Position numbers and translations under genes: made by a program | Shown: positions 30,251 to 50,577 of the stretch, piece by piece | How positions within the stretch are numbered: the stretch's first letter is position 1 | Layout of the letters: each line of letters begins with the position of its first letter | Source: Flavobacterium psychrophilum | GTDB taxonomy: Bacteria > Bacteroidota > Bacteroidia > Flavobacteriales > Flavobacteriaceae | Assembly: GCA_945874225.1 (NCBI GenBank) | Contig: CAMCFT010000008.1 | Span: forward strand, 1 to 64,000 | Reading direction: 5' to 3' | Length of the DNA stretch: 64,000 nt | Notes under the pieces: generated by a model | The model's input: the letters and a program-made list of their open reading frames with translations, nothing else | What the model was told of the DNA's origin: nothing | Databases searched by the model: none

Positions 30251-30360
30251 TACGGATGCAAATATAAAGGAATTGAATGTTTAATATGGGATTTTGTCAG
30301 CAAAAAATAAAGTCCTGATTTTTAAAACAGCAAAGTTCTGAAAAACAAATCATTAAAAAA

Positions 30361-30483: not shown

Positions 30484-30593
30484 AACTCCTTTTTGGTAAA
30501 ATTACAATCTTTTGTTTGATCAGAAGGTATCAAACGTTACACAAGTATATTTTTGTGAAAACAAAATGATACTTTTGTAAAAAATTACATTAA

Positions 30594-31733: not shown

Positions 31734-31734
31734 A

Positions 31735-32766
31735 TTGACCAATACCAATCGAAATATTGCCTTATTCACCCTTTTGACATTGTCATTAGCTTTGCTATTG
31801 CTATTGAATATCAGCTTGGGTTCGGTTTCTATTCCAATAAAAGACGTTTTCAATAGCCTGACAGGAGGGAATTCAAGCAAAGAAACTTGGGATTATATCA
31901 TCATCAATTATCGGTTGCCGAAAGCCTTTACAGCCATTCTAGTTGGAATGGGATTATCAATCAGCGGATTATTGATGCAGACTTTATTTAGAAATCCATT
32001 GGCCGGACCCGATGTTTTGGGATTAAGTTCGGGAGCAAGTTTAGGTGTGGCAACGATAGTTTTGGGCGCTACTTTTTTGCCAATAGGTTTATCCTCTATT
32101 TTACTTTCTTCTTATGGAATTGTTTTAGCGTCAAGTTTAGGCAGTTTCTTGGTTTTACTGGCGGTTTTAGCTGTTTCTCAACGATTGCGCGATACAATGG
32201 CAATCTTGATTGTCGGCTTGATGTTTGCGAGTTTAACCAGCGCTATCGTCGGAACACTCACCTATTTCAGCACGGCCGAACAATTGCAAAAATTCACTTT
32301 TTGGTCAATGGGAAATCTGGGGAATTTATCTTGGTCGTCGATTGTAATTTTATCCGTTTGTGTAGCAATTGGTTTGCTTTTAAGCTTTGTTAGTATCAAG
32401 CCATTAAACGCATTGCTTTTGGGAGAAAATTATGCCCGAAGCTTGGGAATGAATTACAAAAGAACCCGATTGATTATCATCTTTGCCACTAGCATTTTGG
32501 CAGGAAGTATCACTGCTTATGCCGGCCCAATAGCCTTTATTGGATTGGCCGTTCCACATATTGCCAAGTTGGTTTTTCAAACCAGTAATCACACTATTTT
32601 ATTCTGGAGCACGTTACTTTTGGGTGCAATAATTATGCTTATTTGTGATAGTATTTCGCAACTTCCGGGAAGTGATTTAACTTTGCCAATTAATGCCGTG
32701 ACTTCAATTTTTGGCGCACCAATCGTGATTTGGTTGTTAATTCGAAAACGTAAAATGATGAACTAA
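31735..32766 (+). CDS. btuC: FecCD-type ABC permease (BtuC-like)
   Basis: A 343-aa polytopic membrane protein (about 10 helices). ISGLLMQTLFRNPLAGPDVLGLSSGAS (part quoted in motif form: NPLAGPDVLG near 85) is the FecCD signature, and GPIAFIGLAVPHIAK near 265 the ATPase-coupling loop. It seems to start at TTG (31735), right after the previous stop, so translation is probably coupled. Its stop codon coincides with the left end of the inserted repeat cassette. Confidence 0.88.
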   Translation: MTNTNRNIALFTLLTLSLALLLLLNISLGSVSIPIKDVFNSLTGGNSSKETWDYIIINYRLPKAFTAILVGMGLSISGLLMQTLFRNPLAGPDVLGLSSGASLGVATIVLGATFLPIGLSSILLSSYGIVLASSLGSFLVLLAVLAVSQRLRDTMAILIVGLMFASLTSAIVGTLTYFSTAEQLQKFTFWSMGNLGNLSWSSIVILSVCVAIGLLLSFVSIKPLNALLLGENYARSLGMNYKRTRLIIIFATSILAGSITAYAGPIAFIGLAVPHIAKLVFQTSNHTILFWSTLLLGAIIMLICDSISQLPGSDLTLPINAVTSIFGAPIVIWLLIRKRKMMN

Positions 32767-32935
32767 TTTTTTAAACGCATAGAAACATAGGTTTTATAAA
32801 TTTTATCAAGAAGCTTCGCTTTATTATAGTAAATCATAGCTTTGGGATCCGAGACCAAAGGTCGAACAGACAAAGCAAAACAAAGAATTTATCTATTTAA
32901 TTCATTTTTACTATGTTCCTATGCGTTTAAAAAAT
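32766..32935. repeat. Palindromic intergenic repeat, copy C
   Basis: 25-bp inverted ends (24/25 match), interior with ATTTTATCAAG and CATAGCTTTG shared with copy A, and a 36-bp segment around GGATCC that copies A and B lack. It is the left part of the cassette at 32766-33443 and lies directly on the permease stop codon. Confidence 0.7.
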
Positions 32936-32943
32936 AAAAAAAT

Positions 32944-33357
32944 ATGATAACACAAAAATATTTAGATGATTTAACTTATGAAGTAATTGGTTCTGCCATA
33001 GAAGTACATAAAATAATGGGACGAGGTTTGCTCGAAAGTGTTTATCATCAATGCATAAAAGAAGAATTATCACAGAGGAAAATTCAATTTTCTACAGAAA
33101 TGAAAGTTCCTCTAATTTATAAAACCAAAGAACTCAAGGTAGATTTTAAATGTGATTTGCTGATTGAAAATTGTCTTGTCGTGGAGTTAAAATCTGTAAT
33201 GCAATCAAATCCAATATTTGAAGCTCAGCTTATGACTTATATGAAACTTTTAAAAGCTCCAAAAGGGATTTTAATTAATTTTAATTGTTTTAATATTTTC
33301 AAAGAAGGACAAAAAACTTTTGTAAACGAATATTTTAAAAACTTACCCGAAAAGTAA
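32944..33357 (+). CDS. GxxExxY protein (PD-(D/E)XK nuclease-like)
   Basis: A 137-aa protein. The family motif is GRGLLESVYHQC (about 27-38), fitting G-x-x-E-x-x-Y. The PD-(D/E)XK-like core follows, VDFKCDLLIENCLVVELKSV (about 75-94), with the E-L-K trio, then EAQLMTYMKLLKAPKGILINFN. The family is widespread in Bacteroidota and has no firmly known function; a nuclease fold is predicted. It lies alone within inverted repeats that interrupt the btu operon. Confidence 0.88.
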   Translation: MITQKYLDDLTYEVIGSAIEVHKIMGRGLLESVYHQCIKEELSQRKIQFSTEMKVPLIYKTKELKVDFKCDLLIENCLVVELKSVMQSNPIFEAQLMTYMKLLKAPKGILINFNCFNIFKEGQKTFVNEYFKNLPEK

Positions 33358-33461
33358 CGTGTTTTTCTATGATTGAAACTAAGTTTCAACTATAACTCCT
33401 TTGATAATTTCCAAAAAACTATGTTTCTATGCGTTTAAAAAATCCTAACTTGTAAACAAAA

Positions 33462-34250
33462 ATGAACAACCAAAATAATATTCTTTCAACTTCAAATTTA
33501 AGTATTGGCTACATAGCCAAAAAATCGGTATCAACCATTGCCAAAAATCTAAACTTGAATTTACAGGAAGGAAAACTAATCGCTTTAATTGGCGCAAATG
33601 GTATTGGAAAATCAACGCTTTTAAGAACCATTACAGGAATCAAGAAACCACTTTCGGGAACCGTCAAGCTGAATGAAAAGAACATTCACGAATTGGATTC
33701 TTTAACCTTGGCACAAAATCTAAGTGTCGTTTTGACTGAGAAATTACCTCCAAGTAATTTGACAGTTTGGGAACTTATCGCCTTGGGAAGACAGCCTTAC
33801 ACCAACTGGATTGGGACATTAACCGACAATGATATTGCGAAAGTAAACGACGCAATTGAACTCACTCAAATCGAGCATTTGACATCCAAAAAACATTACG
33901 AAATCAGTGATGGACAACTACAAATCGTCTTGATTGCAAGAGCTTTGGCACAAGACACACCTTTAATTATTTTGGACGAGCCCACAACCCACTTGGACTT
34001 ACTGCACAAAGTAGTGCTTTTTAAACTCTTGAAAAAACTCACGCAAGAAACTGGAAAGTGTATTCTGTTTTCAACTCACGATATTGATATGGCGATACAA
34101 TTGAGCGATGAAATGATTATTATGACTCCCGATTCCGTGGTTCAAGACCAACCTTGCAATTTGATTATGAAAGGAAGTTTCAACACTTTGTTTAAAGACG
34201 AACATATAGTCTTTGATAGTGAAAAAGGAAAGTTTATCATTAATGGATAA
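33462..34250 (+). CDS. btuD: ABC transporter ATP-binding protein (BtuD-like)
   Basis: A 262-aa ATPase. Walker A GANGIGKST near residue 43, an atypical signature ISDGQLQIVLIARAL near 148 (SDGQ for SGGQ), and Walker B LIILDEPTTHLD near 169. It completes the B12/iron-chelate transporter with btuF and btuC. Between btuC and this gene lies the 678-bp cassette, which probably weakens co-transcription unless the cassette is read through. The last codons (NG stop) come from a palindromic repeat. Confidence 0.86.
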   Translation: MNNQNNILSTSNLSIGYIAKKSVSTIAKNLNLNLQEGKLIALIGANGIGKSTLLRTITGIKKPLSGTVKLNEKNIHELDSLTLAQNLSVVLTEKLPPSNLTVWELIALGRQPYTNWIGTLTDNDIAKVNDAIELTQIEHLTSKKHYEISDGQLQIVLIARALAQDTPLIILDEPTTHLDLLHKVVLFKLLKKLTQETGKCILFSTHDIDMAIQLSDEMIIMTPDSVVQDQPCNLIMKGSFNTLFKDEHIVFDSEKGKFIING

Positions 34251-38231: not shown

Positions 38232-39146
38232 CTATTTACCCATACAATCCCGAAGAGCATCTTCTAACTCTCTAAAGCGGAATATAAATCCCAATTTCTC
38301 AATCTTTTCCGAAGAAACTCTCCTTCCTGTAAGTATAATTTTAGACATTTCACCCAAACCTAATTTTATCAAAATGGCTGGAACATTGGGCAACCAAATT
38401 GAATATCCATATATTTTTGCTAATGTTTTTGAAAAAACAGTATTCGTTGTATTATCAGTGATTGCAGCATTATAAGCACCTTCCATTTTTGTATTTTTTA
38501 AAGCTTCCAGATAAATTGCACACAAATCATCTATATGAATCCAAGGCATATATTGCTTTCCTGAACCAAGTGCAGAGCCCAATCTAAATTTAAAAATTGG
38601 AGTCAGTTTCTTTAAAAAACCATCATCTTTTCCGAGAACTAAACCCGTACGAATTTTTACGGTGCGAATTCCTAAACTATTAATAGTATCTGCAGAAGCT
38701 TCCCATTTTTGGCAAGTCAAACCCAAAAAATCATCGGAAGGAATAGTGTTTTCATCACAAATTGCTGAACCATTTATGGCTCCGTAAATCCCAATTCCTG
38801 AAGCTGAAACAAAAGCTTCTAGCTTTTTATTGCTCTTTTTTAAAACTTCATAAATCAATTTTGTCGATTGTTCTCTGCTGTTTATAATGGCAGCTTTCCG
38901 TTTTGTAGTCCATCTTTTTTCAGCAATATTTTCGCCTGCAAGATGAATTATAAAATCAGCATTAAGAACTGCCTTCTCATCAATATAAATACTGGAAACA
39001 TCCCAGATATAATAGGAAATATCATTCGTGTTTTGTTTATTACTTCTACTCAAAATTGAAACGGAATAACCATTAGCAATTAACAAATTAGTCAAATGCT
39101 TCCCAACGAATCCCGAACCTCCACTTATTAATACATTTTTTTTCAT
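38232..39146 (-). CDS. TIGR01777 family epimerase/oxidoreductase
   Basis: A 304-aa NAD(P)-binding Rossmann protein. LISGGSGFVGKHLTNLLI at the start is the cofactor motif, and the YGYSIWLPNVPAILIKLGLGEM segment and a C-terminal DUF1731-like tail (about 255-300) define the family (SulA-like epimerase). Reaction unknown. It is divergent from the TetR-like gene, and the shared intergenic region holds one of the proposed CarH operators. Confidence 0.87.
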   Translation of the reverse strand: MKKNVLISGGSGFVGKHLTNLLIANGYSVSILSRSNKQNTNDISYYIWDVSSIYIDEKAVLNADFIIHLAGENIAEKRWTTKRKAAIINSREQSTKLIYEVLKKSNKKLEAFVSASGIGIYGAINGSAICDENTIPSDDFLGLTCQKWEASADTINSLGIRTVKIRTGLVLGKDDGFLKKLTPIFKFRLGSALGSGKQYMPWIHIDDLCAIYLEALKNTKMEGAYNAAITDNTTNTVFSKTLAKIYGYSIWLPNVPAILIKLGLGEMSKIILTGRRVSSEKIEKLGFIFRFRELEDALRDCMGK

Positions 39147-39199: not shown

Positions 39200-39229
39200 T
39201 GTTTAACTTTAATTGATTATGATTAAACA
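39200..39229. promoter_or_regulatory. Proposed CarH operator, TetR/UbiB operon
   Basis: TGTTTAA-N16-TTAAACA, perfect 7-bp half sites. It overlaps the -33 region of the likely promoter (TTG 39213-39215, TATCTTTA 39234-39241). The same architecture, with N16, is found at crtI (49540-49569) and carH (50482-50511). Confidence 0.6.
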
Positions 39230-39266
39230 TTGTATATCTTTATACCCTAATTTAAAATTAATAAAA

Positions 39267-39926
39267 ATGGCTACTAAAAAAACAACAATAACAAGAGACA
39301 AAATTGTTTCAATGTATATGAAATACAGATTAGAAAATAATGATAAGCCAAAATCAGTATATCAATTTGCCAAAATAAATGGTTTTGACGAAACGGAATT
39401 CTATAATTTTTATGGCACCATCGAAAGTGTCGAAAAAGAAATTTTTAAAATGTTTCTAGAAAAAACATTACAATTAATTCAAAAAGATCCATCATATGAA
39501 ACCTATGATATGAAGAGCAAAATGTTAAGTTTCTACTTTACATTTTTCGAATTATTGTCGGCCAATAGAAGTTATGTTGTAATGAGTTTGAAAGAACACC
39601 AGAATCAACTGAAAAATCTAATGCAACTTTCGAACCTACGAATCGGATTCAAAAACTATATTACCGAAATTATTACTGATGATGTGAGAACCCAATACGA
39701 AAAATTTCAAAATTTTCAAGAAAAAGCAATTCAGGAAACGGCTTGGATTCAATTTTTATTGACATTGAAATTCTGGATGGAAGATGAATCACCTGCTTTC
39801 GAAAAAACAGACATCTATATTGAAAAATCCGTAAAGGCAACATTCGAATTAATGAATAGCGCACCCATAGACAGCATAATCGATTTTGGAAAATTTATTT
39901 TCAAAGAAAAAATATACAACAAATAA
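39267..39926 (+). CDS. TetR/AcrR-like transcriptional regulator
   Basis: 219 aa from the ATG at 39267. An N-terminal helix-turn-helix (about 8-55, SVYQFAKINGFDETEFYNFYG) has the TetR-type recognition region, followed by an all-helical ligand-binding-like domain. It shares one base with the next start, so it is coupled to the UbiB-like kinase gene. It may instead act as a non-DNA-binding partner. Target unknown. Confidence 0.72.
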   Translation: MATKKTTITRDKIVSMYMKYRLENNDKPKSVYQFAKINGFDETEFYNFYGTIESVEKEIFKMFLEKTLQLIQKDPSYETYDMKSKMLSFYFTFFELLSANRSYVVMSLKEHQNQLKNLMQLSNLRIGFKNYITEIITDDVRTQYEKFQNFQEKAIQETAWIQFLLTLKFWMEDESPAFEKTDIYIEKSVKATFELMNSAPIDSIIDFGKFIFKEKIYNK

Positions 39927-41230
39927 TGAAAACCATAGACTACATTCCTACTTCAAAAATTGAAAGAGCGACAAAACTCGTGCAAACTGGTGCAAAAGTG
40001 GGCGTAAATTATATTAAATATTACGGCGAAAAAATGGTAAATCCAACAATGACTCGTGATAAACTCAATGAAGACAATGCCGAAGACATTTATGATGGAC
40101 TGAAAAGTCTGAAAGGAAGTGCGCTGAAAGTCGCGCAAATGTTGAGTATGGACAAGAGTTTTTTGCCACAGGCTTATGTCGAGAAATTTTCCCTATCTCA
40201 ATTCTCAGTTCCGCCATTATCAGCTCCTTTGGTTTTAAAAACCTTCAAAGCTAATTTTGGTAAAACTCCCTATGAAATATTTGATGAGTTTGATGCCTTT
40301 TCTGTTAATGCCGCCAGTATAGGACAAGTTCATAAAGCAACTAAGGATGGAAAAAAATTAGCAGTAAAAATTCAATATCCTGGTGTTGCAAATAGTATTT
40401 CTTCGGATTTGGCTATGGTAAAACCCATTGCTATCAGAATGTTTAATCTTCAAGGAAAAGATTCGGACAAATATTTCAAGGAAGTGGAAGACAAGTTGAT
40501 TGAAGAAACCGACTATTTATTGGAATTAAAACAAAGCAAAGAAGTAGTTGAAGCGTGCAAGAAAATTGAAAATCTGGTTTTTCCAGACTACTATCCCAAG
40601 TACTCTTCTGAGAAAATTATCACGATGGATTGGATGACGGGAATCCATCTTTCGGAGTTTACCAAAAAAAATACTAATCAGGAAGTCGCCAATACTGTTG
40701 GACAGGCATTGTGGAATTTCTATATGTATCAAATTCACATTTTAAGAAAAGTTCATGCTGATCCGCATCCGGGAAATTTTCTTGTAAATCCAGAGAATCA
40801 ATTGGTAGCAATAGATTTTGGATGTATGAAAAAAATTCCAAACGAATTTTACATTCCATATTTTGAGTTAATTAACCCAGAAGTTATAGACAACAAAAAA
40901 CTATTTAGAGAAAAATTATTCGAATTGGAGATTCTTAGAGAGGATGATTCCAAAGAAGAAATCGAATATTTCACCCAAATGTTTTATGACCTATTGTCGT
41001 TATTCACCAAACCATTTCAATCAGAAACATTTGATTTTTCTGATGAAGATTTTTTTCAAAACATTGCGCAATTAGGAGAACGATTTTCTAAAGACACCAA
41101 TCTTAGAAAAATGAATGGCAATCGTGGTTCTAAACATTTTATTTATATGAATAGAACGTTTTTTGGTTTATATAATTTGATGTTCGATTTGAAATCTAAA
41201 ATTGTGGTAAACGAATATCTAAAATACTAG
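39926..41230 (+). CDS. ABC1/UbiB-family atypical kinase (AarF-like)
   Basis: A 434-aa protein. The KxGQ-like region LKGSALKVAQMLSMD (about 58-72) and the A-rich loop SVNAASIGQVHKATKDGKKLAVKIQYP are ABC1 hallmarks, with the catalytic site HADPHPGNFLVNPENQLVAIDFGC near residue 275. UbiB-type proteins act on lipid-associated pathways such as quinone synthesis. It is co-transcribed with TIGR03643 and pigment- and light-associated genes. Confidence 0.9.
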   Translation: MKTIDYIPTSKIERATKLVQTGAKVGVNYIKYYGEKMVNPTMTRDKLNEDNAEDIYDGLKSLKGSALKVAQMLSMDKSFLPQAYVEKFSLSQFSVPPLSAPLVLKTFKANFGKTPYEIFDEFDAFSVNAASIGQVHKATKDGKKLAVKIQYPGVANSISSDLAMVKPIAIRMFNLQGKDSDKYFKEVEDKLIEETDYLLELKQSKEVVEACKKIENLVFPDYYPKYSSEKIITMDWMTGIHLSEFTKKNTNQEVANTVGQALWNFYMYQIHILRKVHADPHPGNFLVNPENQLVAIDFGCMKKIPNEFYIPYFELINPEVIDNKKLFREKLFELEILREDDSKEEIEYFTQMFYDLLSLFTKPFQSETFDFSDEDFFQNIAQLGERFSKDTNLRKMNGNRGSKHFIYMNRTFFGLYNLMFDLKSKIVVNEYLKY

Positions 41231-41232
41231 CC

Positions 41233-41511
41233 TTGAAAAAAGAACTCTCTGAGATTGATAAAGACAGAATTATTGAAATGGCTTGGGAAGACCGAACTAC
41301 ATTCGATGCGATTTTGTTACAATTTGGATTAAAAGAACAAGAAGTTATCGATTTAATGCGAATCGAGATGAAACCTTCGAGTTTTAGAATGTGGCGCGAA
41401 AGAGTACAAGGCAGGAAAACAAAACACGAAAAATTAAGGGATTTTAGAGAAGGACGATTCAAATGCAGCATGCAAAGACAAATCAATAACAATAAAATTT
41501 CGAAGAGATAA
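41233..41511 (+). CDS. TIGR03643 family protein
   Basis: A 92-aa protein that apparently starts at TTG (41233), 2 bp after the UbiB-like stop. The family shows conserved W and M residues: MAWEDRTTFDAILLQFGL and MRIEMKPSSFRMWRERVQGR. Function unknown; members are often near photolyase and related light-response genes in other bacteria, as here. No membrane helix or signal. Confidence 0.85.
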   Translation: MKKELSEIDKDRIIEMAWEDRTTFDAILLQFGLKEQEVIDLMRIEMKPSSFRMWRERVQGRKTKHEKLRDFREGRFKCSMQRQINNNKISKR

Positions 41512-41524
41512 TTAAAATAAAACC

Positions 41525-42208
41525 ATGAAAAATATAGTGATCATAGGTGGTAGCAAAGGAATTGGAAATGCAATTTTAATGCAACAATTGGAAACAAACT
41601 TAGTTTACAACATTAGTAGAAATGCTCCGGACATTTTGCATCCCAACTTGAAACATTTTTCTTTAGATGTTTTGCAAGATACTCTTCCAGACATTGAAAA
41701 CATTGACGTTTTGATATATTGTCCGGGTTCAATTAATTTGAAACCTATTGGCAGTTTAAGTATCGATGATTTCCGAAATGATTTCGAAATTAATGTGATT
41801 GGTGCTGTAAAAACTATTCAGAAATATTTACCTGTATTGAAAAAAGGCAACAACCCATCCATCGTTTTGTTCAGCACTGTTGCAGCAAAACTAGGAATGC
41901 CTTTCCACGCAAGCATCGCAACTGCTAAGGCGGGAATCGAAGGTTTAGTGAAATCGCTCGGAGCAGAACTAGCTTCTGTAATAAGAATCAATGCCATTGC
42001 TCCTACTATTACTGAAACAACATTGGCGGCAGGAATTCTACGAAACGATCGAATGAAAGAAAATATGATAGAACGCCACCCCATGAAAGGTTATCTAAAA
42101 CCTGAAGAAGTGGCTCATATGGCGGACTTTCTCATTTCAGAAAATGCAAAATCAATCTCGGGACAGATTTTCGAAATGGATTACGGTATTGTTACATTCA
42201 AAATATAA
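41525..42208 (+). CDS. Short-chain dehydrogenase/reductase
   Basis: A 227-aa SDR. The cofactor motif is GGSKGIGNAI near residue 8. A serine (LFSTVAAKLGMPFHASIATAKAGIEG) precedes the active K, but the usual YxxxK tyrosine appears replaced (HASIATAK), so catalysis may be atypical. It belongs to the plus-strand light operon between TIGR03643 and folE. Substrate unknown. Confidence 0.85.
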   Translation: MKNIVIIGGSKGIGNAILMQQLETNLVYNISRNAPDILHPNLKHFSLDVLQDTLPDIENIDVLIYCPGSINLKPIGSLSIDDFRNDFEINVIGAVKTIQKYLPVLKKGNNPSIVLFSTVAAKLGMPFHASIATAKAGIEGLVKSLGAELASVIRINAIAPTITETTLAAGILRNDRMKENMIERHPMKGYLKPEEVAHMADFLISENAKSISGQIFEMDYGIVTFKI

Positions 42209-42250
42209 AAAGAAAACTTAAATAATTTATTTATACTTAAATAAAAGAAA

Positions 42251-42865
42251 ATGATAGCCAAACAAATAAAAGGGTACGAAAAAATAGAAAAATACGATAC
42301 GGAAACAACAGCAATATTAGCCGATAACTACCGATCCATAATTGAAAATTTAGGTGAAAACATCTACAGAGAAGGACTCGAAAAAACTCCGGAAAGAGCT
42401 GCAAAAGCAATGCAATATTTAACTCACGGATACGGTTTAGATCCTTTAGAAATTCTAAAATCGGCTCTGTTTACAGAAAATCATAAGCAGATGATTGTCG
42501 TAAAAGACATTGAAGTATACTCAATGTGCGAACATCACATGTTACCCTTTTTTGGAAAAGCACATATAGCATATATTCCAAACGGTAAAATTGTTGGTTT
42601 AAGTAAAATCCCAAGAGTGGTTGATGCTTTTTCAAGAAGAATGCAAGTGCAGGAAAGATTAACAGATGAGATAAAAAACTGTATCCAGGACGCATTAGAT
42701 CCATTAGGAGTTGCTGTAGTTATTGAAGCGCAACATATGTGCATGTGCATGCGAGGTATTCAAAAACAAAATTCAGTAACCACAACATCGTCTTTTAATG
42801 GAGCTTTCGAAAAAAACAAAACCAGAAAAGAGTTTATAAGTTTAGTTTCTAATAAATTGAGTTAA
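42251..42865 (+). CDS. folE: GTP cyclohydrolase I
   Basis: A 204-aa enzyme converting GTP to dihydroneopterin triphosphate for folate and pterins. The zinc site is C93 with the two histidines in [12 protein letters not shown], and the second cysteine region is [11 protein letters not shown] near 161. The QEDKLT-like segment is replaced by [10 protein letters not shown]. Its place beside photolyase genes could mean it supplies the folate or pterin antenna cofactor of photolyase. Confidence 0.92.
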
Positions 42866-42888
42866 ATTTGATCCATTAAACTAAAACC

Positions 42889-44307
42889 ATGAAAATTCTT
42901 TTAACAGGTGCAACAGGATATATCGGGAAGCGGCTGTTGCCTATTTTAATAGCGCAAGGCCACGAAATTATTTGCTGTGTTAGAGACAAAAACAGGTTTT
43001 ATACCCCAAAAGAATTTTTAAAAAGCATCGAAGTTATTGAAGTTGATTTTCTGAAACCAGAAACATTGACAGCCATTCCAAATGATATTGACGCTGCCTA
43101 TTATTTGATCCATTCTATGTCAGGCTCAGACGATAATTATGATGAATTGGAAAGAGTCTCGGCAGAAAATTTCGTTTACAGCATTGACAAAACTGCGGCA
43201 AAACAAGTCATTTATTTAAGTGGTATCGTGAATGATAAATCACTTTCCAAACATTTGTCCTCCAGAAAAAAAGTGGAGGATGTTTTACACAACGGAAATT
43301 TTGCCATAACAACATTGAGAGCTGGAATCATTGTGGGTTCCGGTAGCGCTTCATTCGAAATTATTCGGGATCTTGTCAATAAACTCCCGATTATGATTAC
43401 TCCAAAATGGCTAAACACCAAATGTCAGCCCATTGCCATACCGGATGTTCTGGAGTTTTTATCAAAATCACTCCTGAATCCCGTTACTTATGGAAAGAGT
43501 TTTGATATTGGCGGTCCTGATATTCTAACCTATAAAGAAATGCTTTTGGGTTTTGCCAAGGCAAAAAAATTAAAACGATGGATTTATACGGTTCCAATAA
43601 TGACACCCAAATTATCGTCCTATTGGTTGTATTTTGTAACCTCAACTTCATACAAACTAGCCTCAGCATTGGTCAGCAGCATGAAAGTTGAAGTAATTTG
43701 CAGGGACAATAAAATAAATGATTTGTTGGGAGTAAACCCCTTGTCCTACGAGCAAGCCTTATCGAGAGCCCTGATAAAAGTGGATGAAGACAAAGTCGCT
43801 TCCAGCTGGAAAGATTCATTGGTCAGCGGAAGATTTAACAGCAATATTTCCGAATTTTTAAAAGTTCCAAAGAAAAACTGTTTTATAGACCGACGAAAAA
43901 AAACAATAGAAAATAAAGAGTATACGCTTGAAAAAATTTGGTCTATTGGCGGAGAAACTGGTTGGTATTATGGCGATTGGCTATGGAATATTCGCGGTTT
44001 CATAGACAAATTATTCGGTGGTGTGGGTTCACGTAGAGGCAGAACCAACAAACACGATATCCATTCGGGTGATGCATTGGATTTTTGGCGTGTTTTGTAT
44101 GCCAATAAAGAGGAAGGAAAATTAGTTTTATATGCCGAAATGAAATTACCTGGTGAAGCTTGGCTCGAATTCAAGATTATCAACAATACTTTATACCAAT
44201 CCGCTACATTCAAACCAAAAGGCATTTGGGGGAAACTATATTGGTATGCTGTTTTACCTTTTCACGGATTTATATTCGAGGGAATGCTGAATAAATTAAT
44301 CAAATAA
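42889..44307 (+). CDS. NAD(P)-binding epimerase-like protein with C-terminal DUF2867
   Basis: A 472-aa two-domain protein. The Rossmann domain (about 1-290) opens with LLTGATGYIGKRLLPILI. The C-terminal DUF2867 domain (about 320-470) carries the family's GVGSRRGRTN and PGEAWLEFKI motifs. Function unknown, common in light-response neighbourhoods. Last gene of the operon; its stop is 2 bp from the convergent photolyase. Confidence 0.85.
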   Translation: MKILLTGATGYIGKRLLPILIAQGHEIICCVRDKNRFYTPKEFLKSIEVIEVDFLKPETLTAIPNDIDAAYYLIHSMSGSDDNYDELERVSAENFVYSIDKTAAKQVIYLSGIVNDKSLSKHLSSRKKVEDVLHNGNFAITTLRAGIIVGSGSASFEIIRDLVNKLPIMITPKWLNTKCQPIAIPDVLEFLSKSLLNPVTYGKSFDIGGPDILTYKEMLLGFAKAKKLKRWIYTVPIMTPKLSSYWLYFVTSTSYKLASALVSSMKVEVICRDNKINDLLGVNPLSYEQALSRALIKVDEDKVASSWKDSLVSGRFNSNISEFLKVPKKNCFIDRRKKTIENKEYTLEKIWSIGGETGWYYGDWLWNIRGFIDKLFGGVGSRRGRTNKHDIHSGDALDFWRVLYANKEEGKLVLYAEMKLPGEAWLEFKIINNTLYQSATFKPKGIWGKLYWYAVLPFHGFIFEGMLNKLIK

Positions 44308-44308
44308 A

Positions 44309-45604
44309 TCACTTCAAAATTCCCGCTTTGTAAGTCGCAATGGCTCGATCTCTGGCAAAAGCGTGTTCAACCATAGGCTCTCCATAACCCAAATCGAATT
44401 CAGGAATCCATTTTCGAATATAAATTCCTTTTTCATCAAATTTTTTGAGCTGGATTTCTGGATTAAAAACCCTGAAATAAGGTGCAGCATCACAACCTGT
44501 TCCCGCAGCCCATTGCCAGTTTCCAACATTGGCTGACAATTCAAAATCCAACAACTTTTCGGCAAAATAAGCTTCGCCCCATTGCCAGTTAATCAACAAA
44601 TGTTTGCAAAGAAAACTCGCTACCACCATTCGAACTCTGTTGTGCATATAGCCCGTTTCATTCAATTCGCGCATTCCGGCATCAACCATTGGATATCCAG
44701 TTGTTCCTGAGCACCACCGCTTGAAATCTTCCTCGTTATTCAGCCATTGAATTCCGTCGTAAGCTGATTTAAAATTGTTCGTAACCACCTTTGGAAAACT
44801 GAACAAAATTTGCATAAAAAATTCTCTCCAAATCAGTTCACTCAAAAAAACTTGGTTTTTATGTACAGCCCAATTCACTAATTTCCGAATACTAACCGTT
44901 CCAAAACGTAAATGTGGCGAAAGATGAGTTGTACTATCCAAAGCTGGATAATCTCGGGTTTCGTGATAATTGGTAACGTTTTTTAAATTATGGGGTATCA
45001 CTTTTATGGCACTTTCTTTGAATCCAATTTGTTCCAATGTTGGGAAAACAAAGTCGTTTTTATGGAAATTGGAAAATCTTTCGGAAGTATCGTATTCTTG
45101 AACAGGAGCCATTGATTTATACTTTTCTAGCCATTTATTTTTATAAGGCGTATAAACGGTATAAGGAAGTCCGTCGGCTTTTGTGATTTCCTTTTCCTCG
45201 AAAATGACTTGGTCTTTAAAAGAAAAATGTGCTGTTTTATTGGCTTCTAATAATTCACAAATAGCCAAATCCCTTTTGATGGCATACAGCTCATAATCTT
45301 TGTTGAAGAATACTTCCTTGACATCAAATTCTTGAATAAGTGCTTCCCAAACATCTACAGTTTTTCCCTTTTTTACCAAAAGTGAACTTCCTATTTCCTT
45401 GAGTTTAGCATTTATTCTGGAAAGTGAATCGTGTATAAAACCAACTCTTGCATCATTTTTAGGCAAACTGTCCAAAATAGCTTCATCAAAAATAAACAAG
45501 GGAATAACAGGATATTGGGATTGTAGAGCCTGAAACAAACCAACATTATCTTCTAATCGCAAATCTCTCCTGAACCAAAAAATGGTTATTCCCTGTTTAT
45601 TCAT
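44309..45604 (-). CDS. phr: Deoxyribodipyrimidine photo-lyase
   Basis: A 431-aa photolyase repairing UV-induced cyclobutane dimers with light. The N-terminal antenna domain starts FWFRRDLRLEDNVGLFQAL. The FAD domain shows WCSGTTGYPMVDAGMRELN, NRVRMVVASFLCKHLLINW and GNWQWAAGTGCDAAPYFR (conserved tryptophans). Its start overlaps the previous gene's stop by one base. It lies in the carotenoid operon headed by a CarH-like regulator, so light may control it. Confidence 0.95.
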   Translation of the reverse strand: MNKQGITIFWFRRDLRLEDNVGLFQALQSQYPVIPLFIFDEAILDSLPKNDARVGFIHDSLSRINAKLKEIGSSLLVKKGKTVDVWEALIQEFDVKEVFFNKDYELYAIKRDLAICELLEANKTAHFSFKDQVIFEEKEITKADGLPYTVYTPYKNKWLEKYKSMAPVQEYDTSERFSNFHKNDFVFPTLEQIGFKESAIKVIPHNLKNVTNYHETRDYPALDSTTHLSPHLRFGTVSIRKLVNWAVHKNQVFLSELIWREFFMQILFSFPKVVTNNFKSAYDGIQWLNNEEDFKRWCSGTTGYPMVDAGMRELNETGYMHNRVRMVVASFLCKHLLINWQWGEAYFAEKLLDFELSANVGNWQWAAGTGCDAAPYFRVFNPEIQLKKFDEKGIYIRKWIPEFDLGYGEPMVEHAFARDRAIATYKAGILK

Positions 45605-46065
45605 TATTTGGAATTAAACATTTCATCCACTTTTGCACATCGGTAATCAAAGATTTCTTTCAACTTATTTTTTACTACAAGTGTATTCATTATTCTGCCA
45701 AGGAAACCAAGTGGCAAAGCATAATGAACTAAATCGGTCATTTTCGTACCGTTTTCTGTTGGTTCAAAAAAATGTTTGTGATGCCATAAAGCATATGGAC
45801 CAAAACGTTGTTCGTCGATGAAATAACTTTTGTCTTTCACGAAAGTGATTTCTGTTGTCCAACTTAATTTCAAACCAGCAAGTGGCGACACTTTATACTG
45901 GATAATTTGTCCGGCATACATCGATTTATTGTCGAAATCCGTGATTTGAAAACCCATTGTTTCTGGAGTAATCTTCTGTAAATTTCTTGGATTTGAAAAA
46001 AAAGCCCAACATTCCTCGATACTCGCATTTACAAATTGAACGGTTTCTTTTTTATATACTTTCAT
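45604..46065 (-). CDS. SRPBCC-family protein
   Basis: A 153-aa START/Bet v1-like protein. ASIEECWAFFSNPRNLQKITPETMGF is the typical opening, and FVDEQRFGPYALWHHKHFF the ligand-loop region (motif form HHKH). Likely binds a hydrophobic ligand. It overlaps the lycopene cyclase by 4 bp and photolyase by 1 bp, so it is coupled in the crt-phr operon. Such proteins are frequent near photolyases in Bacteroidota. Ligand unknown. Confidence 0.82.
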   Translation of the reverse strand: MKVYKKETVQFVNASIEECWAFFSNPRNLQKITPETMGFQITDFDNKSMYAGQIIQYKVSPLAGLKLSWTTEITFVKDKSYFIDEQRFGPYALWHHKHFFEPTENGTKMTDLVHYALPLGFLGRIMNTLVVKNKLKEIFDYRCAKVDEMFNSK

Positions 46066-46745
46066 TGTAATTTTTTTTCAATTTTTTTAATTAAAACCAA
46101 ACTCATCAGTAACATCGAAAAGGCATAACCTATATCTTCTATTGGTATGGTTCCAAGTCTAATTCCTAAATTTTCTGCATCATTATACATCACGACCGGT
46201 TCATCAATAAAACTGCCGGTAAGAATTCCGTTGACTACTGAAAATGGTATTAATATGATCAGAAAAGTAATGAAAAAAGTGTTCAAAATATTGGGAACCT
46301 TGAAAACCGTGTAGGTCAAAATCAATACTAATAAACTGTAATTAACTGCCGTGTACCATCTATCATAATGTAATACAATTGTAGGCAAAAGGATTATCAT
46401 CAGAATCCAATAAATAGATTTCACAGTTTTGTCCGATAAAGAAACCTTTGGATAAAAATAGTGAAAAGCAAAATGTATAAAGATGCTGGCATACGGAATG
46501 CAAACAAAAAACAGCCATTCTTCAAGGGGTAAACCAAAGAATTCAGTTCCGGAATGGTATCTTGGATTAAAACTCCAAACTCCAATCTTAGTGAAGAAAA
46601 TATCCCAAATAATAAAGAAAATTGCTGTTATGACAATAGCAGAAAAAACAGCTTTCCATCGTTTTATATACTTCATCCTGTTTTCGAAACTATACAGAAA
46701 CGGAACTAAAAAGGACATAATATTTAAAACTAAATATAAGGACAT
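46062..46745 (-). CDS. crtYcd: Lycopene beta-cyclase, fused CrtYc-CrtYd type
   Basis: 227 aa from ATG 46745 (MSLYLVLNIMSFLVPFL), a polytopic membrane protein. Two copies of the lycopene-cyclase domain can be seen through their repeated motifs, FGLPLEEWLFF near residue 80 and GTIPIEDIGYAFSML near 205 (PxEE/D). It turns lycopene to beta-carotene. The start lies 1 bp from the crtZ stop. The gene was probably annotated longer because of an upstream frame. Confidence 0.85.
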   Translation of the reverse strand: MSLYLVLNIMSFLVPFLYSFENRMKYIKRWKAVFSAIVITAIFFIIWDIFFTKIGVWSFNPRYHSGTEFFGLPLEEWLFFVCIPYASIFIHFAFHYFYPKVSLSDKTVKSIYWILMIILLPTIVLHYDRWYTAVNYSLLVLILTYTVFKVPNILNTFFITFLIILIPFSVVNGILTGSFIDEPVVMYNDAENLGIRLGTIPIEDIGYAFSMLLMSLVLIKKIEKKLQ

Positions 46746-46746
46746 A

Positions 46747-47187
46747 TTAAAATTTAAAATATTTGAAAGGCACAAATAACATTCCAAAACATTCGCCATG
46801 TTCTTTACCCATATGTTTGTGATGCACTTTATGACCTTTTCGTAACCCTAACAAATATTTGTTTTTGGTATTTTTAAAAAACTTAAATCGCTGATGTATC
46901 ATAACATCGTGAACCAAAAAATAGCTCATGCCATAAGCAAAAATCCCTAATCCAATGAAGAACTTGTAATCAAAACCCGCATCTGCCCCAAAATAAAATA
47001 AAAGAATACTTGGAATAGCAAAAATTACAAAAAAAACATCATTCCGTTCGAAAATATGTGCGTATTTGGGTTGGTGATGATCTTCATGAAAATACCACAA
47101 AAAACCATGCATAACAAACTTATGTGTGCACCACGTAACACATTCCATAATTAGATAAGTAGCCAAAAAAATTAAGAAATATATCAT
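46747..47187 (-). CDS. crtZ: Beta-carotene hydroxylase (CrtZ-like)
   Basis: A 146-aa membrane di-iron enzyme. Histidine boxes HKFVMH (22-27), HEDHH (34-38), HDVMIH and HKVHHKHMGKEHG are those of the fatty acid hydroxylase/carotene hydroxylase family. It adds hydroxyl groups to beta-carotene to give zeaxanthin, the usual yellow pigment of flavobacteria. It sits between the phytoene synthase gene and the cyclase gene. Confidence 0.9.
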   Translation of the reverse strand: MIYFLIFLATYLIMECVTWCTHKFVMHGFLWYFHEDHHQPKYAHIFERNDVFFVIFAIPSILLFYFGADAGFDYKFFIGLGIFAYGMSYFLVHDVMIHQRFKFFKNTKNKYLLGLRKGHKVHHKHMGKEHGECFGMLFVPFKYFKF

Positions 47188-47224
47188 TTTAAAATATTTT
47201 TAGTTTAGTAAAAAAGATCCTGAT

Positions 47225-48064
47225 TTAAACCAAATTCAGTTTGTAAGTTACAAAAGAATTGGTTAACAATCGCACTTTAGTATAATTAGAAACCCGAATT
47301 CTTGAATTTCCAATTTCATAATAAGGAGTGTTTTCAAGCTTCTTCAACAACTTTTTATAATAAACATAGGCAGTATAAACACCGAATTTAGCTTCCAAAG
47401 GTAATTTTTTTATTCCTTGTAACGCAATTCGAAAATCTTCTTCAATTTCATTAATAATCATTTCTTTAGATTTTTCATCAAATGAATTTAGATCAACACC
47501 AGGAAAATAATTCCGGTTTAAAACTAAATTATCATCTTTCAAATCTCTTAGGAAATTAACTTTCTGAAAAGCAGAACCCAATCGCATTGCTTCGTCTTTC
47601 AATTCATTGTATCTTTCATCATTCCCATTGACAAAAACCTTCAGACACATCAAACCAACAACATCGGCGGAACCATAAATATATTCATCATATTCCTGTT
47701 TGGTATGATAATCAGATTTTATCAAATCCATTTTCATGCTCTTCAAAAATGACTTAATTAAATCGTCCGAAATGTTATATTTAACAACAGTTTGTTGAAA
47801 AGAATTCAAAATTGGATTTAAACTAACACCAAATTTTTGGGCTTTGTAATATTCATTTTCAAAATCATTTATTAAAGTTTCTTTGTCGAAACCATGAAAA
47901 GAATCTACAATTTCATCAGCAAAACGCACAAAACCATAAATGCTATAAATAGCATCTCTAATACTAGGTGCAAGCATTTTAACAGCCATAGAAAATGAAG
48001 TGCTATAACTTTTTGTTACTAAAATACTGCACTTAAACGATACATCATCAAATAATTTTTTCAT
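47225..48064 (-). CDS. crtB: Phytoene synthase
   Basis: A 279-aa squalene/phytoene synthase that condenses two GGPP to phytoene. Both aspartate-rich regions are present, VRFADEIVDSF (about 46-56) and NFLRDLKDDNLVLNRNYFP (about 165-180). It follows crtI by 2 bp. No crtE is seen here, so GGPP must come from elsewhere. Confidence 0.93.
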   Translation of the reverse strand: MKKLFDDVSFKCSILVTKSYSTSFSMAVKMLAPSIRDAIYSIYGFVRFADEIVDSFHGFDKETLINDFENEYYKAQKFGVSLNPILNSFQQTVVKYNISDDLIKSFLKSMKMDLIKSDYHTKQEYDEYIYGSADVVGLMCLKVFVNGNDERYNELKDEAMRLGSAFQKVNFLRDLKDDNLVLNRNYFPGVDLNSFDEKSKEMIINEIEEDFRIALQGIKKLPLEAKFGVYTAYVYYKKLLKKLENTPYYEIGNSRIRVSNYTKVRLLTNSFVTYKLNLV

Positions 48065-48066
48065 AT

Positions 48067-49539
48067 CTACTGTTTATTTGAGAATTGTTTTTTTATCAAA
48101 TCTGATACTATTTTTCCGGAAATTATTGAAGGGGGAACTCCTGGCCCAGGCACTGTTAATTGTCCGGTAAAAAATAAATTTTTGACTTTTTTGCTAATAA
48201 TCTTTGGTCTTAAAAAAGCAGTTTGAGTAAGAATATTTGCTAATCCGTAGGCGTTTCCTTTGTATGAATTATAATCATTTACAAAATCATTAACGCAGTA
48301 ACTTTCTTTGAAAATAATATTCTCAGTAACTTTTTGATTAGTCAATGTCTCAAATCTTTTTATAATATTTTGAAAATATATTTCTCTAATCATAGTTGTA
48401 TCTTTAATTCCGGGAGCAATTGGAATCAAAAATATTCCAGCTTCTTTACCGTCAGGAGCAACTGAAGCATCTGTTTTGCTTGGAAAGCTCGCATAGAATA
48501 ATGGTTTATCAGGCCACTTTGGATTGTCATAAATATCTTTTGCATGAACATCAAAATCAGTATCGAAAAACAAGGTATGATGTGATACATTTTCAATTTT
48601 TTTATCAAAAGCAACATAAAACAACAACGAAGATGGGGCAAAAACTTTAGAATCCCAATATTTTTCAGAATAACCTCGGTACTTTTCGTCCAATAAAGTT
48701 TCTGTATGATGATAATCAGCTCCACTCAAAACCACATCGGATTCAATAGTAATTCCATTTGAAATGACACTTTTCACAACGCCGTTTTCAACATTTATTT
48801 TCTCAACATTTTGATTGGTTTTAATTTTCACACCCAATTCAGCTGCCAAAATATACATTGCTTTAACCACTTCATACATTCCTCCCTTTGGATGCCAAGT
48901 TCCTAAACCAAAATCAGCATAATTCATAAAACTATAAAATGAAGGCGTATTTGAAGGTTTAGCACCAAGAAATAAAACCGGAAATTCCATAATTTGTTGT
49001 AACCGATTGTTCTTAATTTTTTTTCTGACAGAAGTTCTAATCGTACTAAAAAACTGGTTTGCTTTTTTTATTGTAACCGGTGTAATTAATTCCGTTATTG
49101 AAATTCCGGGTCTATATACCAAATCTTTAATTGCAACATCATAGTTATGTTTCGCATTATCAAGAAATGTTACTAAATGCTTAGCACTTCCAACTTCTTC
49201 TTTTTCAAAAACGGAAAGAATATCGGGTAAATTATCTGCAATTTGAATGGAATCTAATGTATCAAAATAGACTTCATAAGCAGGATTCAACTTATCTAAG
49301 TGGAAGTAATCAGAAGGCTGTTTATTGAAATCAGCAAAGAATTTCTCAAAAACATCTGGCATCCAATACCAAGTTGGGCCAATATCAAAAGTAAAACCAT
49401 CTTTGATAAATTGTCTGGCTCTACCACCAACTGTATTATTTTTTTCGAGAATGGTAACATCAAAACCTTCTTTCGCCAAATAGCATGAAGCTGCTAAAGA
49501 CGAAAATCCTGAACCTATAATTGTTATTGTTTTTTTCAT
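48067..49539 (-). CDS. crtI: Phytoene desaturase
   Basis: A 490-aa flavoprotein that desaturates phytoene to lycopene. The dinucleotide-binding N-terminus GSGFSSLAASCYLAKEG (8-24) and the C-terminal LFFTGQLTVPGPGVPPSIISG are the CrtI signatures. It has its own promoter (TTG 49578-49576, TATATTTG 49554-49547, minus strand), and this is inside a proposed CarH operator (49540-49569) immediately before the ATG. It lies 52 bp after carH. Confidence 0.93.
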   Translation of the reverse strand: MKKTITIIGSGFSSLAASCYLAKEGFDVTILEKNNTVGGRARQFIKDGFTFDIGPTWYWMPDVFEKFFADFNKQPSDYFHLDKLNPAYEVYFDTLDSIQIADNLPDILSVFEKEEVGSAKHLVTFLDNAKHNYDVAIKDLVYRPGISITELITPVTIKKANQFFSTIRTSVRKKIKNNRLQQIMEFPVLFLGAKPSNTPSFYSFMNYADFGLGTWHPKGGMYEVVKAMYILAAELGVKIKTNQNVEKINVENGVVKSVISNGITIESDVVLSGADYHHTETLLDEKYRGYSEKYWDSKVFAPSSLLFYVAFDKKIENVSHHTLFFDTDFDVHAKDIYDNPKWPDKPLFYASFPSKTDASVAPDGKEAGIFLIPIAPGIKDTTMIREIYFQNIIKRFETLTNQKVTENIIFKESYCVNDFVNDYNSYKGNAYGLANILTQTAFLRPKIISKKVKNLFFTGQLTVPGPGVPPSIISGKIVSDLIKKQFSNKQ

Positions 49540-49569
49540 TGTTCAGCAAATATACAAATAAGTTAAACA
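49540..49569. promoter_or_regulatory. Proposed CarH operator at crtI
   Basis: TGTTCAG-N16-TTAAACA (5 of 7 half-site match). The spacer contains the -7 box TATATTTG (minus strand), so a bound protein would block transcription of crtI. The palindrome begins one base upstream of the start codon. Same architecture as at 39200 and 50482. Confidence 0.6.
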
Positions 49570-49591
49570 AAATAACAACATTAACATTAAA

Positions 49592-50491
49592 TTATAATTC
49601 CTGAACTAAATCTGAAATGGAATGAAAAATAGAAATTGTGTCAGGAAGGTTTTTAGTGTCAATAAATTCGGTCATTCTTCCGAGGAACCAAATCTTCGAA
49701 TTAGCATCAATAATTTCAGCAGAAATTTCTTTTACATAATCGTTAATAGCATCTTTTGTAGGCTGAACGGTCAAATAGGAAATGTAAACAATGTTGTCAA
49801 AATAATTTTTCATATACTTTAAACTTTCAATAGGAACACTTTCGCCAAGATAAATTGTTTTGTATCCATTCAACAAAATTTCGTAATTCAGATACATTAG
49901 ACCCAGTTCATGAATCTCATTTTCCGGAAGATACAATACAAAAACTTTATCGTTCCTTGTAGGTTCAAGAATTTGGACTTTTTCAGTATTTATGAGTAGT
50001 TTTTGTTTAATCAAATAGGAAATAAAGTGCTCTTGTGCTGGAGAAATTGTATTAGATTGCCACAACAAGCCTATTTCATTCATCAGCGGAATAATAATCT
50101 CAAAAAATACTTCTCGAAATGATTTTTCAGAAAGCAAACTGTTGTAAGTATTGAAAAATAAAGCTTGATCAAAGTTAACCATCGCGACCTTAAAAGCATT
50201 TAAAGCATGATTTTTTGAACTTTTATCAGATATTATTTCTCGAACAAGAAGGGAAATTTTTTCTGTATTTAATTCTGCAATCCTAGAAATTTTATAGCCG
50301 TAAGAATTTAATAATGTTACATTCAAAAGCTTTTGCAGATTAGATAAATCGTAGGTTCTAATATTGGTATCTGTTCGCATTGGTTCAAGAATATTATATC
50401 TTTTCTCCCAAATTCGAATTGTGTGCGCTTTTATTCCGGAAAGATTTTCCAGGTCTTTTATACTAAAAACCGATTTGACATTGTTTATCAT
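49592..50491 (-). CDS. CarH/LitR-type MerR regulator with cobalamin-binding domain
   Basis: A 299-aa regulator. MerR helix-turn-helix about 9-75 (FSIKDLENLSGIKAHTIRIWEKR). A helical cap follows with W144, then E154-H155 exactly nine residues later (LWQSNTISPAQEHF), the CarH W-x9-EH pattern. The B12 Rossmann domain starts near 181 and has ENEIHELG (E192-x-H194-x-x-G197), so H194 is the likely lower cobalt ligand. CarH tetramers repress carotenoid genes in the dark and release DNA in light. It leads the crt-phr operon. Two residues differ from the classic form (see findings). Confidence 0.88.
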   Translation of the reverse strand: MINNVKSVFSIKDLENLSGIKAHTIRIWEKRYNILEPMRTDTNIRTYDLSNLQKLLNVTLLNSYGYKISRIAELNTEKISLLVREIISDKSSKNHALNAFKVAMVNFDQALFFNTYNSLLSEKSFREVFFEIIIPLMNEIGLLWQSNTISPAQEHFISYLIKQKLLINTEKVQILEPTRNDKVFVLYLPENEIHELGLMYLNYEILLNGYKTIYLGESVPIESLKYMKNYFDNIVYISYLTVQPTKDAINDYVKEISAEIIDANSKIWFLGRMTEFIDTKNLPDTISIFHSISDLVQEL

Positions 50492-50511
50492 TTATCTAAA
50501 TTTAATAAACA
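50482..50511. promoter_or_regulatory. Proposed CarH operator at carH
   Basis: TGTTTAT-N16-ATAAACA, perfect 7-bp half sites. It runs from the -7 box TACCTTTG (minus strand, 50517-50510) into the first codons of carH, so autoregulation is expected. Confidence 0.65.
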
Positions 50512-50577
50512 AAGGTATGATATATTTTTATATAATTAAAAAAACATTTTTTTTATGTGAAAAATATGTTTAAAAAA

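What the first reader, a model, noticed from the sequence alone, without database searches (positions are those of the whole stretch)
39200..50511. Same 30-bp palindrome at three promoters: candidate operator for the CarH-like regulator
A palindrome with 7-bp half sites separated by exactly 16 bases occurs at carH (TGTTTAT...ATAAACA, 50482-50511), at crtI (TGTTCAG...TTAAACA, 49540-49569) and before the TetR/UbiB operon (TGTTTAA...TTAAACA, 39200-39229). In all three it overlaps a promoter element: the -7 box or start region in carH and crtI, and the -33 region in the TetR operon. That suits a repressor. The regulator at 49592 is the obvious candidate. If right, one B12 and light sensor controls pigment, photolyase, FolE, UbiB-like kinase and TIGR03643 together. 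The sequence match is direct; the protein-site link is inference.
Basis: partly seen in the sequence, partly recalled or inferred. Interest (0 to 1): 0.87.

Follow-up and report, generated by a model that had tools for sequence, protein, structure and literature searches.

The report
Shared light-B12 switch in Bacteroidota
The same 30-base mirror-image DNA tag sits at the pigment, DNA-repair and regulator genes of this Flavobacterium-like genome and, in many relatives, at other light-related genes including the light-driven pump proteorhodopsin, and it is most likely the docking site of a vitamin-B12-based light sensor.

Summary
In detail: all three palindromes are at the stated places, and two exact matches occur in the window where 0.03 are expected. 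In 80 related loci the exact half-sites TGTTTA/TAAACA pair 93 times at 18 bases, ten times at 19, and 0-2 times at each other spacing up to 59. The site is kept at carH (75 of 79 testable loci), crtI (59 of 77) and tetR (31 of 31), each in its own fixed register to the -7 box. It follows the CarH-like gene: strict sites in 37 of 38 CarH-plus but 5 of 38 CarH-minus family genomes; it does not follow TetR. Half-sites fit the published CarH code TnnACA, but inverted, not as 11-bp direct repeats. Beyond the finding, the site lies before fasciclin lipoproteins, SRPBCC, TIGR03643 and proteorhodopsin (29 of 40 CarH-plus genomes), and in distant Bacteroidota often before a sigma-factor gene. Best reading: a B12/light repressor regulon widespread in Bacteroidota. 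Binding, repression, and B12 and light dependence are inferred, not shown.

The parts
50482..50511 (-). operator at carH; its downstream half lies in the first codons of carH
   Evidence: conserved in 75 of 79 testable loci counting spacing 18 or 19
50510..50517 (-). -7 box TACCTTTG of carH (TAnnTTTG)
   Evidence: same register in 64 of 68 relatives; box type recalled
49592..50491 (-). CarH-like regulator, MerR DNA-binding domain plus B12-binding region
49540..49569 (-). operator at crtI (one mismatch)
   Evidence: conserved in 59 of 77 testable loci counting spacing 18 or 19
49547..49554 (-). -7 box TATATTTG of crtI, inside the operator
   Evidence: 50 of 57
44309..49539 (-). gene run behind the crtI operator: crtI, crtB, crtZ-like, lycopene cyclase-domain gene, SRPBCC, photolyase/cryptochrome
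   Evidence: small gaps or overlaps; operon is inferred
39200..39229 (.). operator between tetR (+) and the divergent TIGR01777 gene (-)
   Evidence: conserved in 31 of 31 testable loci
39213..39215 (+). possible -33 TTG of the tetR promoter, inside the operator
   Evidence: consensus recalled
39235..39242 (+). -7 box TATCTTTA of tetR
   Evidence: 31 of 31
39267..44307 (+). gene run behind the operator: tetR (39267-39926), UbiB/ABC1-like kinase, TIGR03643, SDR, FolE, DUF2867 protein
   Evidence: operon is inferred from small gaps
38232..39146 (-). TIGR01777 oxidoreductase, divergent from tetR across the operator; may be under the same control

Best explanation
The palindrome is the operator of the CarH-like protein encoded at 49592-50491. 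In the dark, the protein loaded with adenosylcobalamin binds two inverted TnnACA half-sites (T-G-T-T-Y-A, 18 or 19 bases, T-R-A-A-C-A), whose starts are 24-25 bases apart, and blocks RNA polymerase; light breaks the cobalt-carbon bond, the protein lets go, and carH itself, the carotenoid-photolyase run and the TetR-UbiB-TIGR03643-SDR-FolE run are switched on. Relatives use the same operator for fasciclin lipoproteins, SRPBCC, proteorhodopsin with blh, and in distant Bacteroidota for a sigma-factor gene beside carH. Shown here: the sites, their spacing and conservation, overlap with promoter boxes, co-occurrence with carH, conservation of the B12 motifs. Inferred: binding, repression, and dependence on B12 and light.
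For: Spacing peak at 18 (93 pairs). Conserved at carH, crtI and tetR in 75 of 79, 59 of 77 and 31 of 31 testable loci, with half-sites kept and most of the spacer not. Three different fixed registers to the -7 box. Strict sites in 37 of 38 CarH-plus and 5 of 38 CarH-minus genomes (Fisher p 8e-15, kinship not corrected). None of 15 crtI promoters in CarH-minus genomes has a site within 2 mismatches. Half-site T(A 0.80/G 0.19)AACA from 124 distinct sites fits the CarH code TnnACA (PMC9304148 and PMC8156234, passages). Wx9EH and [ED]xHxxG both present in 140 of 151 proteins; fold closest to T. thermophilus CarH. 81 of 82 distinct strict sites are intergenic. Known class II LitR targets include photolyase, FolE and dehydrogenase genes (PMC9758184, passages).
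Against: Every binding claim is indirect. G094 (six sites) and G162 (three) have strict sites but no carH found even at E 0.01; their many contigs suggest incomplete assemblies, not proven. Known CarH operators are tandem 11-bp direct repeats, which this is not. The protein scores 69.9 against a cut-off of 400 for NCBIfam CarH. The six-base pattern is near background genome-wide. In the distant loci 7 of 25 have no site and few have one at carH itself.
Confidence: 0.82

Rival explanations
1. The CarH-like protein binds the site but B12 and light do not act on it directly: it is a B12-independent repressor (like CarA) or takes its light signal from a partner (like the class II LitR proteins with a LOV photoreceptor).
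For: Such members of the family exist (PMC8156234, PMC9758184, passages). 11 of 151 proteins lack one of the two B12 motifs as I searched them (one of the 11, L197, is a failed extraction). The curated Pfam model of the C-terminal B12-binding domain was not hit.
Against: The window's protein has both motifs; W144, E154, E192 and H194 are invariant in 33 aligned proteins; the model's C-terminal part matches CarH cobalamin domains. A cobalamin riboswitch and B12-import-like genes lie nearby.
Confidence: 0.12
2. Another regulator that tends to occur in the same genomes as carH binds the palindrome.
For: Sites without carH in G094 and G162. Co-occurrence is not corrected for kinship.
Against: The site lies at the carH promoter itself in 75 of 79 loci and the half-site is the published CarH code. 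In distant loci with 29-42% identical CarH the site is still found near carH.
Confidence: 0.05
3. The TetR protein at 39267-39926 binds the palindrome, autoregulates its own run and represses carH and crtI.
For: It lies directly beside a perfect palindrome, as TetR-family genes often do (recalled).
Against: 9 of 38 CarH-plus genomes lack a TetR relative at E 1e-15 and all 9 have strict sites; of 5 CarH-minus genomes with TetR, 3 (G074, G173, G195) have no site and 2 (G094, G162) do.
Confidence: 0.02
4. The palindromes are chance or part of the core promoter.
For: TTTG words resemble Bacteroidota promoter boxes (recalled); no excess in the window at 2 mismatches.
Against: Spacing profile, three different registers to the -7 box, absence at crtI of CarH-minus genomes.
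Confidence: 0.01

Closest known systems
CarH of Thermus thermophilus, Bacillus megaterium and myxobacteria
   Same: Domain order, Wx9EH and [ED]xHxxG motifs, fold, half-site code TnnACA, overlap with promoters, control of carotenoid genes (papers PMC9304148, PMC8156234: passages).
   Different: Published operators are tandem 11-bp direct repeats; here two inverted half-sites 18 or 19 bases apart. Sequence identity in the shared folds is about 13-18% and the score is far below the NCBIfam CarH cut-off.
Class II LitR (PplR1, PmlR2) of Pseudomonas
   Same: Spaced half-sites in a repressor operator, overlap with promoter and start region; photolyase, FolE and short-chain dehydrogenase genes in the light-induced set (PMC9758184, passages).
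   Different: Consensus T(G/A)TACA-N12-TGTA(C/T)A, other half-site and spacing; light is sensed by a LOV protein there. Whether a LOV partner exists here was not tested.
CarA of Myxococcus xanthus
   Same: Was first thought to bind inverted repeats at a carotenoid promoter.
   Different: B12-independent, and later work favours direct repeats.

Membership tests
CarH/LitR family | N-terminal MerR-type DNA-binding domain | tested here: met
   PF13411 MerR_1 E 1.3e-12
CarH/LitR family | helical B12-binding domain (PF02607) | tested here: met
   E 6.7e-12
CarH/LitR family | C-terminal Rossmann-type B12-binding domain | tested here: inconclusive
   no Pfam model for it hit at E 0.001; the predicted model matches CarH cobalamin domains, TM about 0.8 by target length
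CarH/LitR family | Wx9EH motif capping the adenosyl group | tested here: met
   present in the window protein and in 143 of 151 proteins
CarH/LitR family | [ED]xHxxG motif with the lower-ligand histidine | tested here: met
   present in the window protein and in 147 of 151 proteins
CarH, NCBIfam equivalog NF052513 | score at or above the curated cut-off | tested here: not met
   69.9 bits, cut-off 400; hence 'CarH-like'
CarH operator as published | tandem 11-bp direct repeats with TnnACA | tested here: not met
   exact TGTTTA pairs in tandem at start distance 11: 1, at 22: 0, in 80 loci, against 93 inverted pairs at gap 18
CarH operator as published | TnnACA core in each half-site | tested here: met
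   T 0.99, A 0.99, C 0.98, A 0.98 at the core positions of 124 distinct sites; the sites were picked by a similar pattern, so this is partly by construction
Class II LitR operator | T(G/A)TACA-N12-TGTA(C/T)A | tested here: not met
   0 exact inverted pairs at gap 12 in 80 loci; other half-site
CarH photoreceptor function | dark binding and light release of DNA with adenosylcobalamin | not testable with these tools
   needs purified protein
Class II LitR | LOV-protein partner encoded nearby | not tested
   no search was made

The most novel reading that the evidence does not exclude
Bacteroidota share one B12-and-light regulon built on an inverted TnnACA operator with an 18-19-base gap. In many proteorhodopsin-bearing Flavobacteriaceae this operator lies just before proteorhodopsin, so that light and the supply of scavenged vitamin B12 together would decide when these bacteria build their light-driven pump.
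Probability: 0.65. Interest if true: 0.88.

Novelty: new variant of a known kind. Interest (0 to 1): 0.76.

Why it matters
How proteorhodopsin is controlled in marine flavobacteria was called in need of further work in 2013 (PMC3587595, passages), and my searches showed no later answer in the open library. This gives a regulator and an operator known to the base, ready for test, and would tie phototrophy, carotenoids, photoprotection and several proteins of unknown role (TIGR03643, DUF2911, DUF2452, fasciclin lipoproteins) to B12 supply. It also adds an operator geometry not described in the CarH/LitR passages that I read, which bears on how the oligomer meets DNA.

Tried and rejected
Considered and rejected: TetR as binder; core promoter element; chance. 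The six-base pattern as a genome-wide predictor is too loose: 70 sites against 50 for the reversed control in 15 genomes, and of 50 sites in the 48 stretches fetched around such sites 9 lie inside genes. The longer form was used after that. Direct repeats 11 bases apart: no peak.

Literature: searches (listings only). Searches returned no paper; one, three, two, none about CarH in this phylum by title and start of abstract; one search found 25, of which 20 were listed. One paper asked for by DOI is not held. The library is open-access only, so this is no proof of absence. Four papers were seen in passages only.

Dropped rows: L004 (carH) and L006 (tetR) for lack of upstream sequence; L408 because the contig ends at the rhodopsin gene. 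L393 (46 bases upstream) and L410 (broken gene) were kept as misses. Of the 40 CarH-plus genomes whose loci I fetched were given; G072 and G017 were left out to match the number of CarH-minus genomes. L144 is the same genome as L006 (G002), so the 80 and the 70 loci overlap by at least one; other overlaps were not checked. A first rhodopsin script parsed only 14 of 30 loci and was redone for all 30. The listings were cut at their ends, so distinct sites are a sample.
Full report
Observation. TGTTTA-N18-TAAACA has two exact matches in 64 kb against 0.03 expected, five with up to one mismatch against 0.74, and no excess at two mismatches. The genes are as described: a MerR/B12-binding protein, a minus-strand run from crtI to a photolyase/cryptochrome and a plus-strand run TetR, UbiB-like, TIGR03643, SDR, FolE, DUF2867 protein, with gaps small enough for operons.

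Conservation. Eighty loci with a carH relative were fetched; the proteins are 60-87% identical to the window's. Most record titles say Flavobacterium, Flavobacteriaceae or Bacteroidetes; a few name unrelated genera and look mislabelled. Counting exact half-site pairs at every gap from 0 to 59 gives 93 at 18, ten at 19 and 0-2 elsewhere; the outward arrangement peaks at 6 and the tandem one at 8. With gap 18 and up to two mismatches the site is at carH in 68 of 79 testable loci, at crtI in 57 of 77, at tetR in 31 of 31. Seven of the carH misses and two of the crtI misses have an exact site with gap 19, giving 75 of 79 and 59 of 77. At carH the site runs into the first codons at one fixed place in 62 of the 68. 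Half-sites are kept while most of the spacer is not; the conserved spacer positions at crtI include its -7 box.

Register. The -7 box TAnnTTTG (TAnnTTTA at tetR) starts 6 bases before the site at carH (64 of 68), 15 bases into it at crtI (50 of 57) and 35 bases from its start at tetR (31 of 31). One element in three registers, each where polymerase would sit, is what a repressor operator looks like. That the boxes are promoter elements rests on the recalled Bacteroidota consensus.

Who binds. Of 199 genomes of the family (a sample drawn by the tool), 161 have a carH relative at E 1e-20 and 38 do not. In 70 CarH loci of the family, 40-81% identical, 58 have the site upstream of carH with at most one mismatch and gap 18; gaps from 8 to 28 other than 18 gave 0-9, except 22 at gap 27, which I take to come from the start of the coding sequence but did not prove. 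crtI has a site of its own in 30 of 66; many of the others lie just behind carH. Of the 38 CarH-minus genomes 15 have crtI, and none of the 15 promoters has a site within two mismatches; Fisher p 6e-4 against 30 of 66. Several of these crtI proteins are as close to the window's (64-71%) as those of CarH-plus relatives. The strict form TTTGTTTAA-N16-TTAAACA occurs in 37 of 38 CarH-plus and 5 of 38 CarH-minus genomes (p 8e-15); reversed-pattern control hits are 2 forward and 3 reverse in the first set, 2 and 1 in the second. The 38 CarH-plus genomes are my choice by spread of identity; the CarH-minus ones are all there were, and they tend to be smaller. Kinship is not corrected for. Against the trend, G094 has six and G162 three strict sites, and no carH was found there even at E 0.01 beyond a chance-level match. 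A TetR relative is missing in nine of the 38 CarH-plus genomes, all nine with strict sites; of five CarH-minus genomes with TetR, three have no strict site and two (G094, G162) do.

The protein. Wx9EH and [ED]xHxxG are both present in 140 of 151 proteins, the window's included. In a 33-sequence alignment W144, E154, E192, H194 and nearly all of the recognition helix KAHTIRIWEKRY are invariant. The AlphaFold2 model has mean pLDDT 89. By sequence and by fold its nearest solved relatives are T. thermophilus CarH; full-length TM-scores are only 0.43-0.62 with large rmsd, while the cobalamin domain reaches about 0.8 by target length, so the domains agree better than their arrangement. It is far below the NCBIfam CarH cut-off, so I call it CarH-like.

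Regulon in relatives. I fetched 48 stretches around exact sites in 15 genomes (chosen to leave out most sites already held at carH and crtI) and had 90 stretches around strict sites in the 38 CarH-plus genomes (30, 60). In the first set 9 of 50 sites lie inside genes and are probably chance; in the second 81 of 82 distinct sites are intergenic. Downstream genes within 250-300 bases fall into recurring similarity clusters. Members over both sets, window proteins left out and loci with two sites counted twice: fasciclin-type lipoproteins 32, TetR 14, SRPBCC 10, crtI 9, DUF2911 6, DUF2452 4, TIGR01777 4, TIGR03643 3, SDR 3. Names rest on one member each tested against Pfam or on similarity to window proteins; other fasciclin members were judged by eye. 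Two clusters of 9 look by eye like mnmA and htpG, and one of 8 lies opposite the fasciclin gene; these may be bystanders. When SRPBCC, TIGR03643 or SDR lie away from the carH cluster, the site lies before them there. Single or rare cases include a Dps/ferritin-like, a fatty-acid-desaturase-type, a flavin-reductase-type and a CHRD-domain gene.

Proteorhodopsin. In G133 two sites lie between a Bac_rhodopsin and a BCD (Blh-like) gene. In the 199 family genomes 50 have a relative of that rhodopsin. Within 300 bases upstream, a site with at most one mismatch and gap 18 is present in 22 of 26 CarH-plus and 2 of 4 CarH-minus genomes among the best 30, and in 7 of 14 and 1 of 5 among 19 of the other 20: together 29 of 40 and 3 of 9. 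Other gaps from 8 to 28 occur in 0-5 of the 40 each. The three CarH-minus cases are G094, G162 and a lone site with one mismatch 86 bases upstream in G070. The difference between CarH-plus and CarH-minus is therefore weaker here than for the strict genome count.

Beyond close kin. In 247 genomes of the phylum (a sample) 52 have a carH relative at E 1e-25. I looked at 25 loci with 29-42% identity; one of them, G047, belongs to the family sample, and two come from one genome. The relaxed site TGTTNA/TNAACA is present in 13 of 25 at gap 18 and 6 of 25 at 19, and in 0-3 at any other gap from 8 to 29; 18 of 25 loci have at least one at 18 or 19, 7 have none; 28 of 29 such sites are intergenic. In 13 loci the site lies just upstream of a gene of 159-176 codons next to carH, two of which were tested and carry Sigma70_r2 and Sigma70_r4_2 domains; in 9 of the 13 there are two sites 44-63 bases apart. 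Others lie at carH (L449, L452, L455, more loosely L443), crtI (L455) and a fasciclin gene (L453). So self-control of carH is common in Flavobacteriaceae but not in these distant loci.

What is known. CarH operators are described as tandem 11-bp repeats with TnnACA (PMC9304148, PMC8156234, passages). Class II LitR uses T(G/A)TACA-N12-TGTA(C/T)A and controls photolyase, FolE and dehydrogenase genes among others (PMC9758184, passages). The half-site code is shared; the inverted arrangement with 18-19 bases between is not described in the passages that I saw. Searches for CarH work in this phylum found none (open library only).

Setting. A cobalamin riboswitch at 30065-30264 and genes that most resemble a B12 receptor and a B12/iron-type ABC importer (all below the NCBIfam cut-offs) lie 5-11 kb from the tetR site in the same window. 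That suits a cell that takes up its B12.

Verdict. What is larger than the finding is its reach: the same operator marks a regulon across Bacteroidota and stands before proteorhodopsin in many genomes.

Noticed in passing
window 28045-34250: Cobalamin riboswitch at 30065-30264 (-) before a TonB receptor most like the B12 receptor, with substrate-binding, BtuC-like permease and ATPase genes on the other strand (scores below NCBIfam cut-offs).
   Followed up: partly
L361-L407: The operator lies just upstream of proteorhodopsin in 29 of 40 CarH-plus genomes examined, often twice.
   Followed up: yes
L434-L440, L443, L444, L447-L450: In distant Bacteroidota the operator, in 9 of these 13 loci as two copies 44-63 bases apart, precedes a sigma-factor gene beside carH and near crtI, a possible two-step light cascade.
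   Followed up: partly
L105, L122, L242, L306, L322 and others: Fasciclin-domain lipoproteins are the commonest gene behind the operator outside the carH cluster (cluster of 32); their role in the light response is unknown to me.
   Followed up: partly
L245, L300, L345, L349, L354: A protein of about 142 codons without any Pfam match (one member tested) recurs behind the operator in five loci.
   Followed up: no
L007, L010, L013, L024, L049: Records titled Klebsiella, Bifidobacterium, Rhizobium and Bdellovibrio carry Flavobacterium-type carH loci at 65-81% identity; the titles of these assemblies are probably wrong.
   Followed up: no
window 39267-39926: The TetR protein matches only the C-terminal model TetR_C_23; no N-terminal TetR model reached E 0.001.
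   Followed up: no
window 47352-47381 and 63244-63273: Two further one-mismatch matches to the palindrome, not studied; probably chance.
   Followed up: no
window 32944-33357: A 137-codon gene (by eye like the GxxExxY family) lies between the permease and ATPase genes of the import locus.
   Followed up: no
window 15268-15303: DUF805b RNA motif match (RF02914, 51.6 bits).
   Followed up: no
G094 and G162: Two family genomes with several strict sites, TetR and proteorhodopsin but no detectable carH; incomplete assemblies or a real exception.
   Followed up: partly
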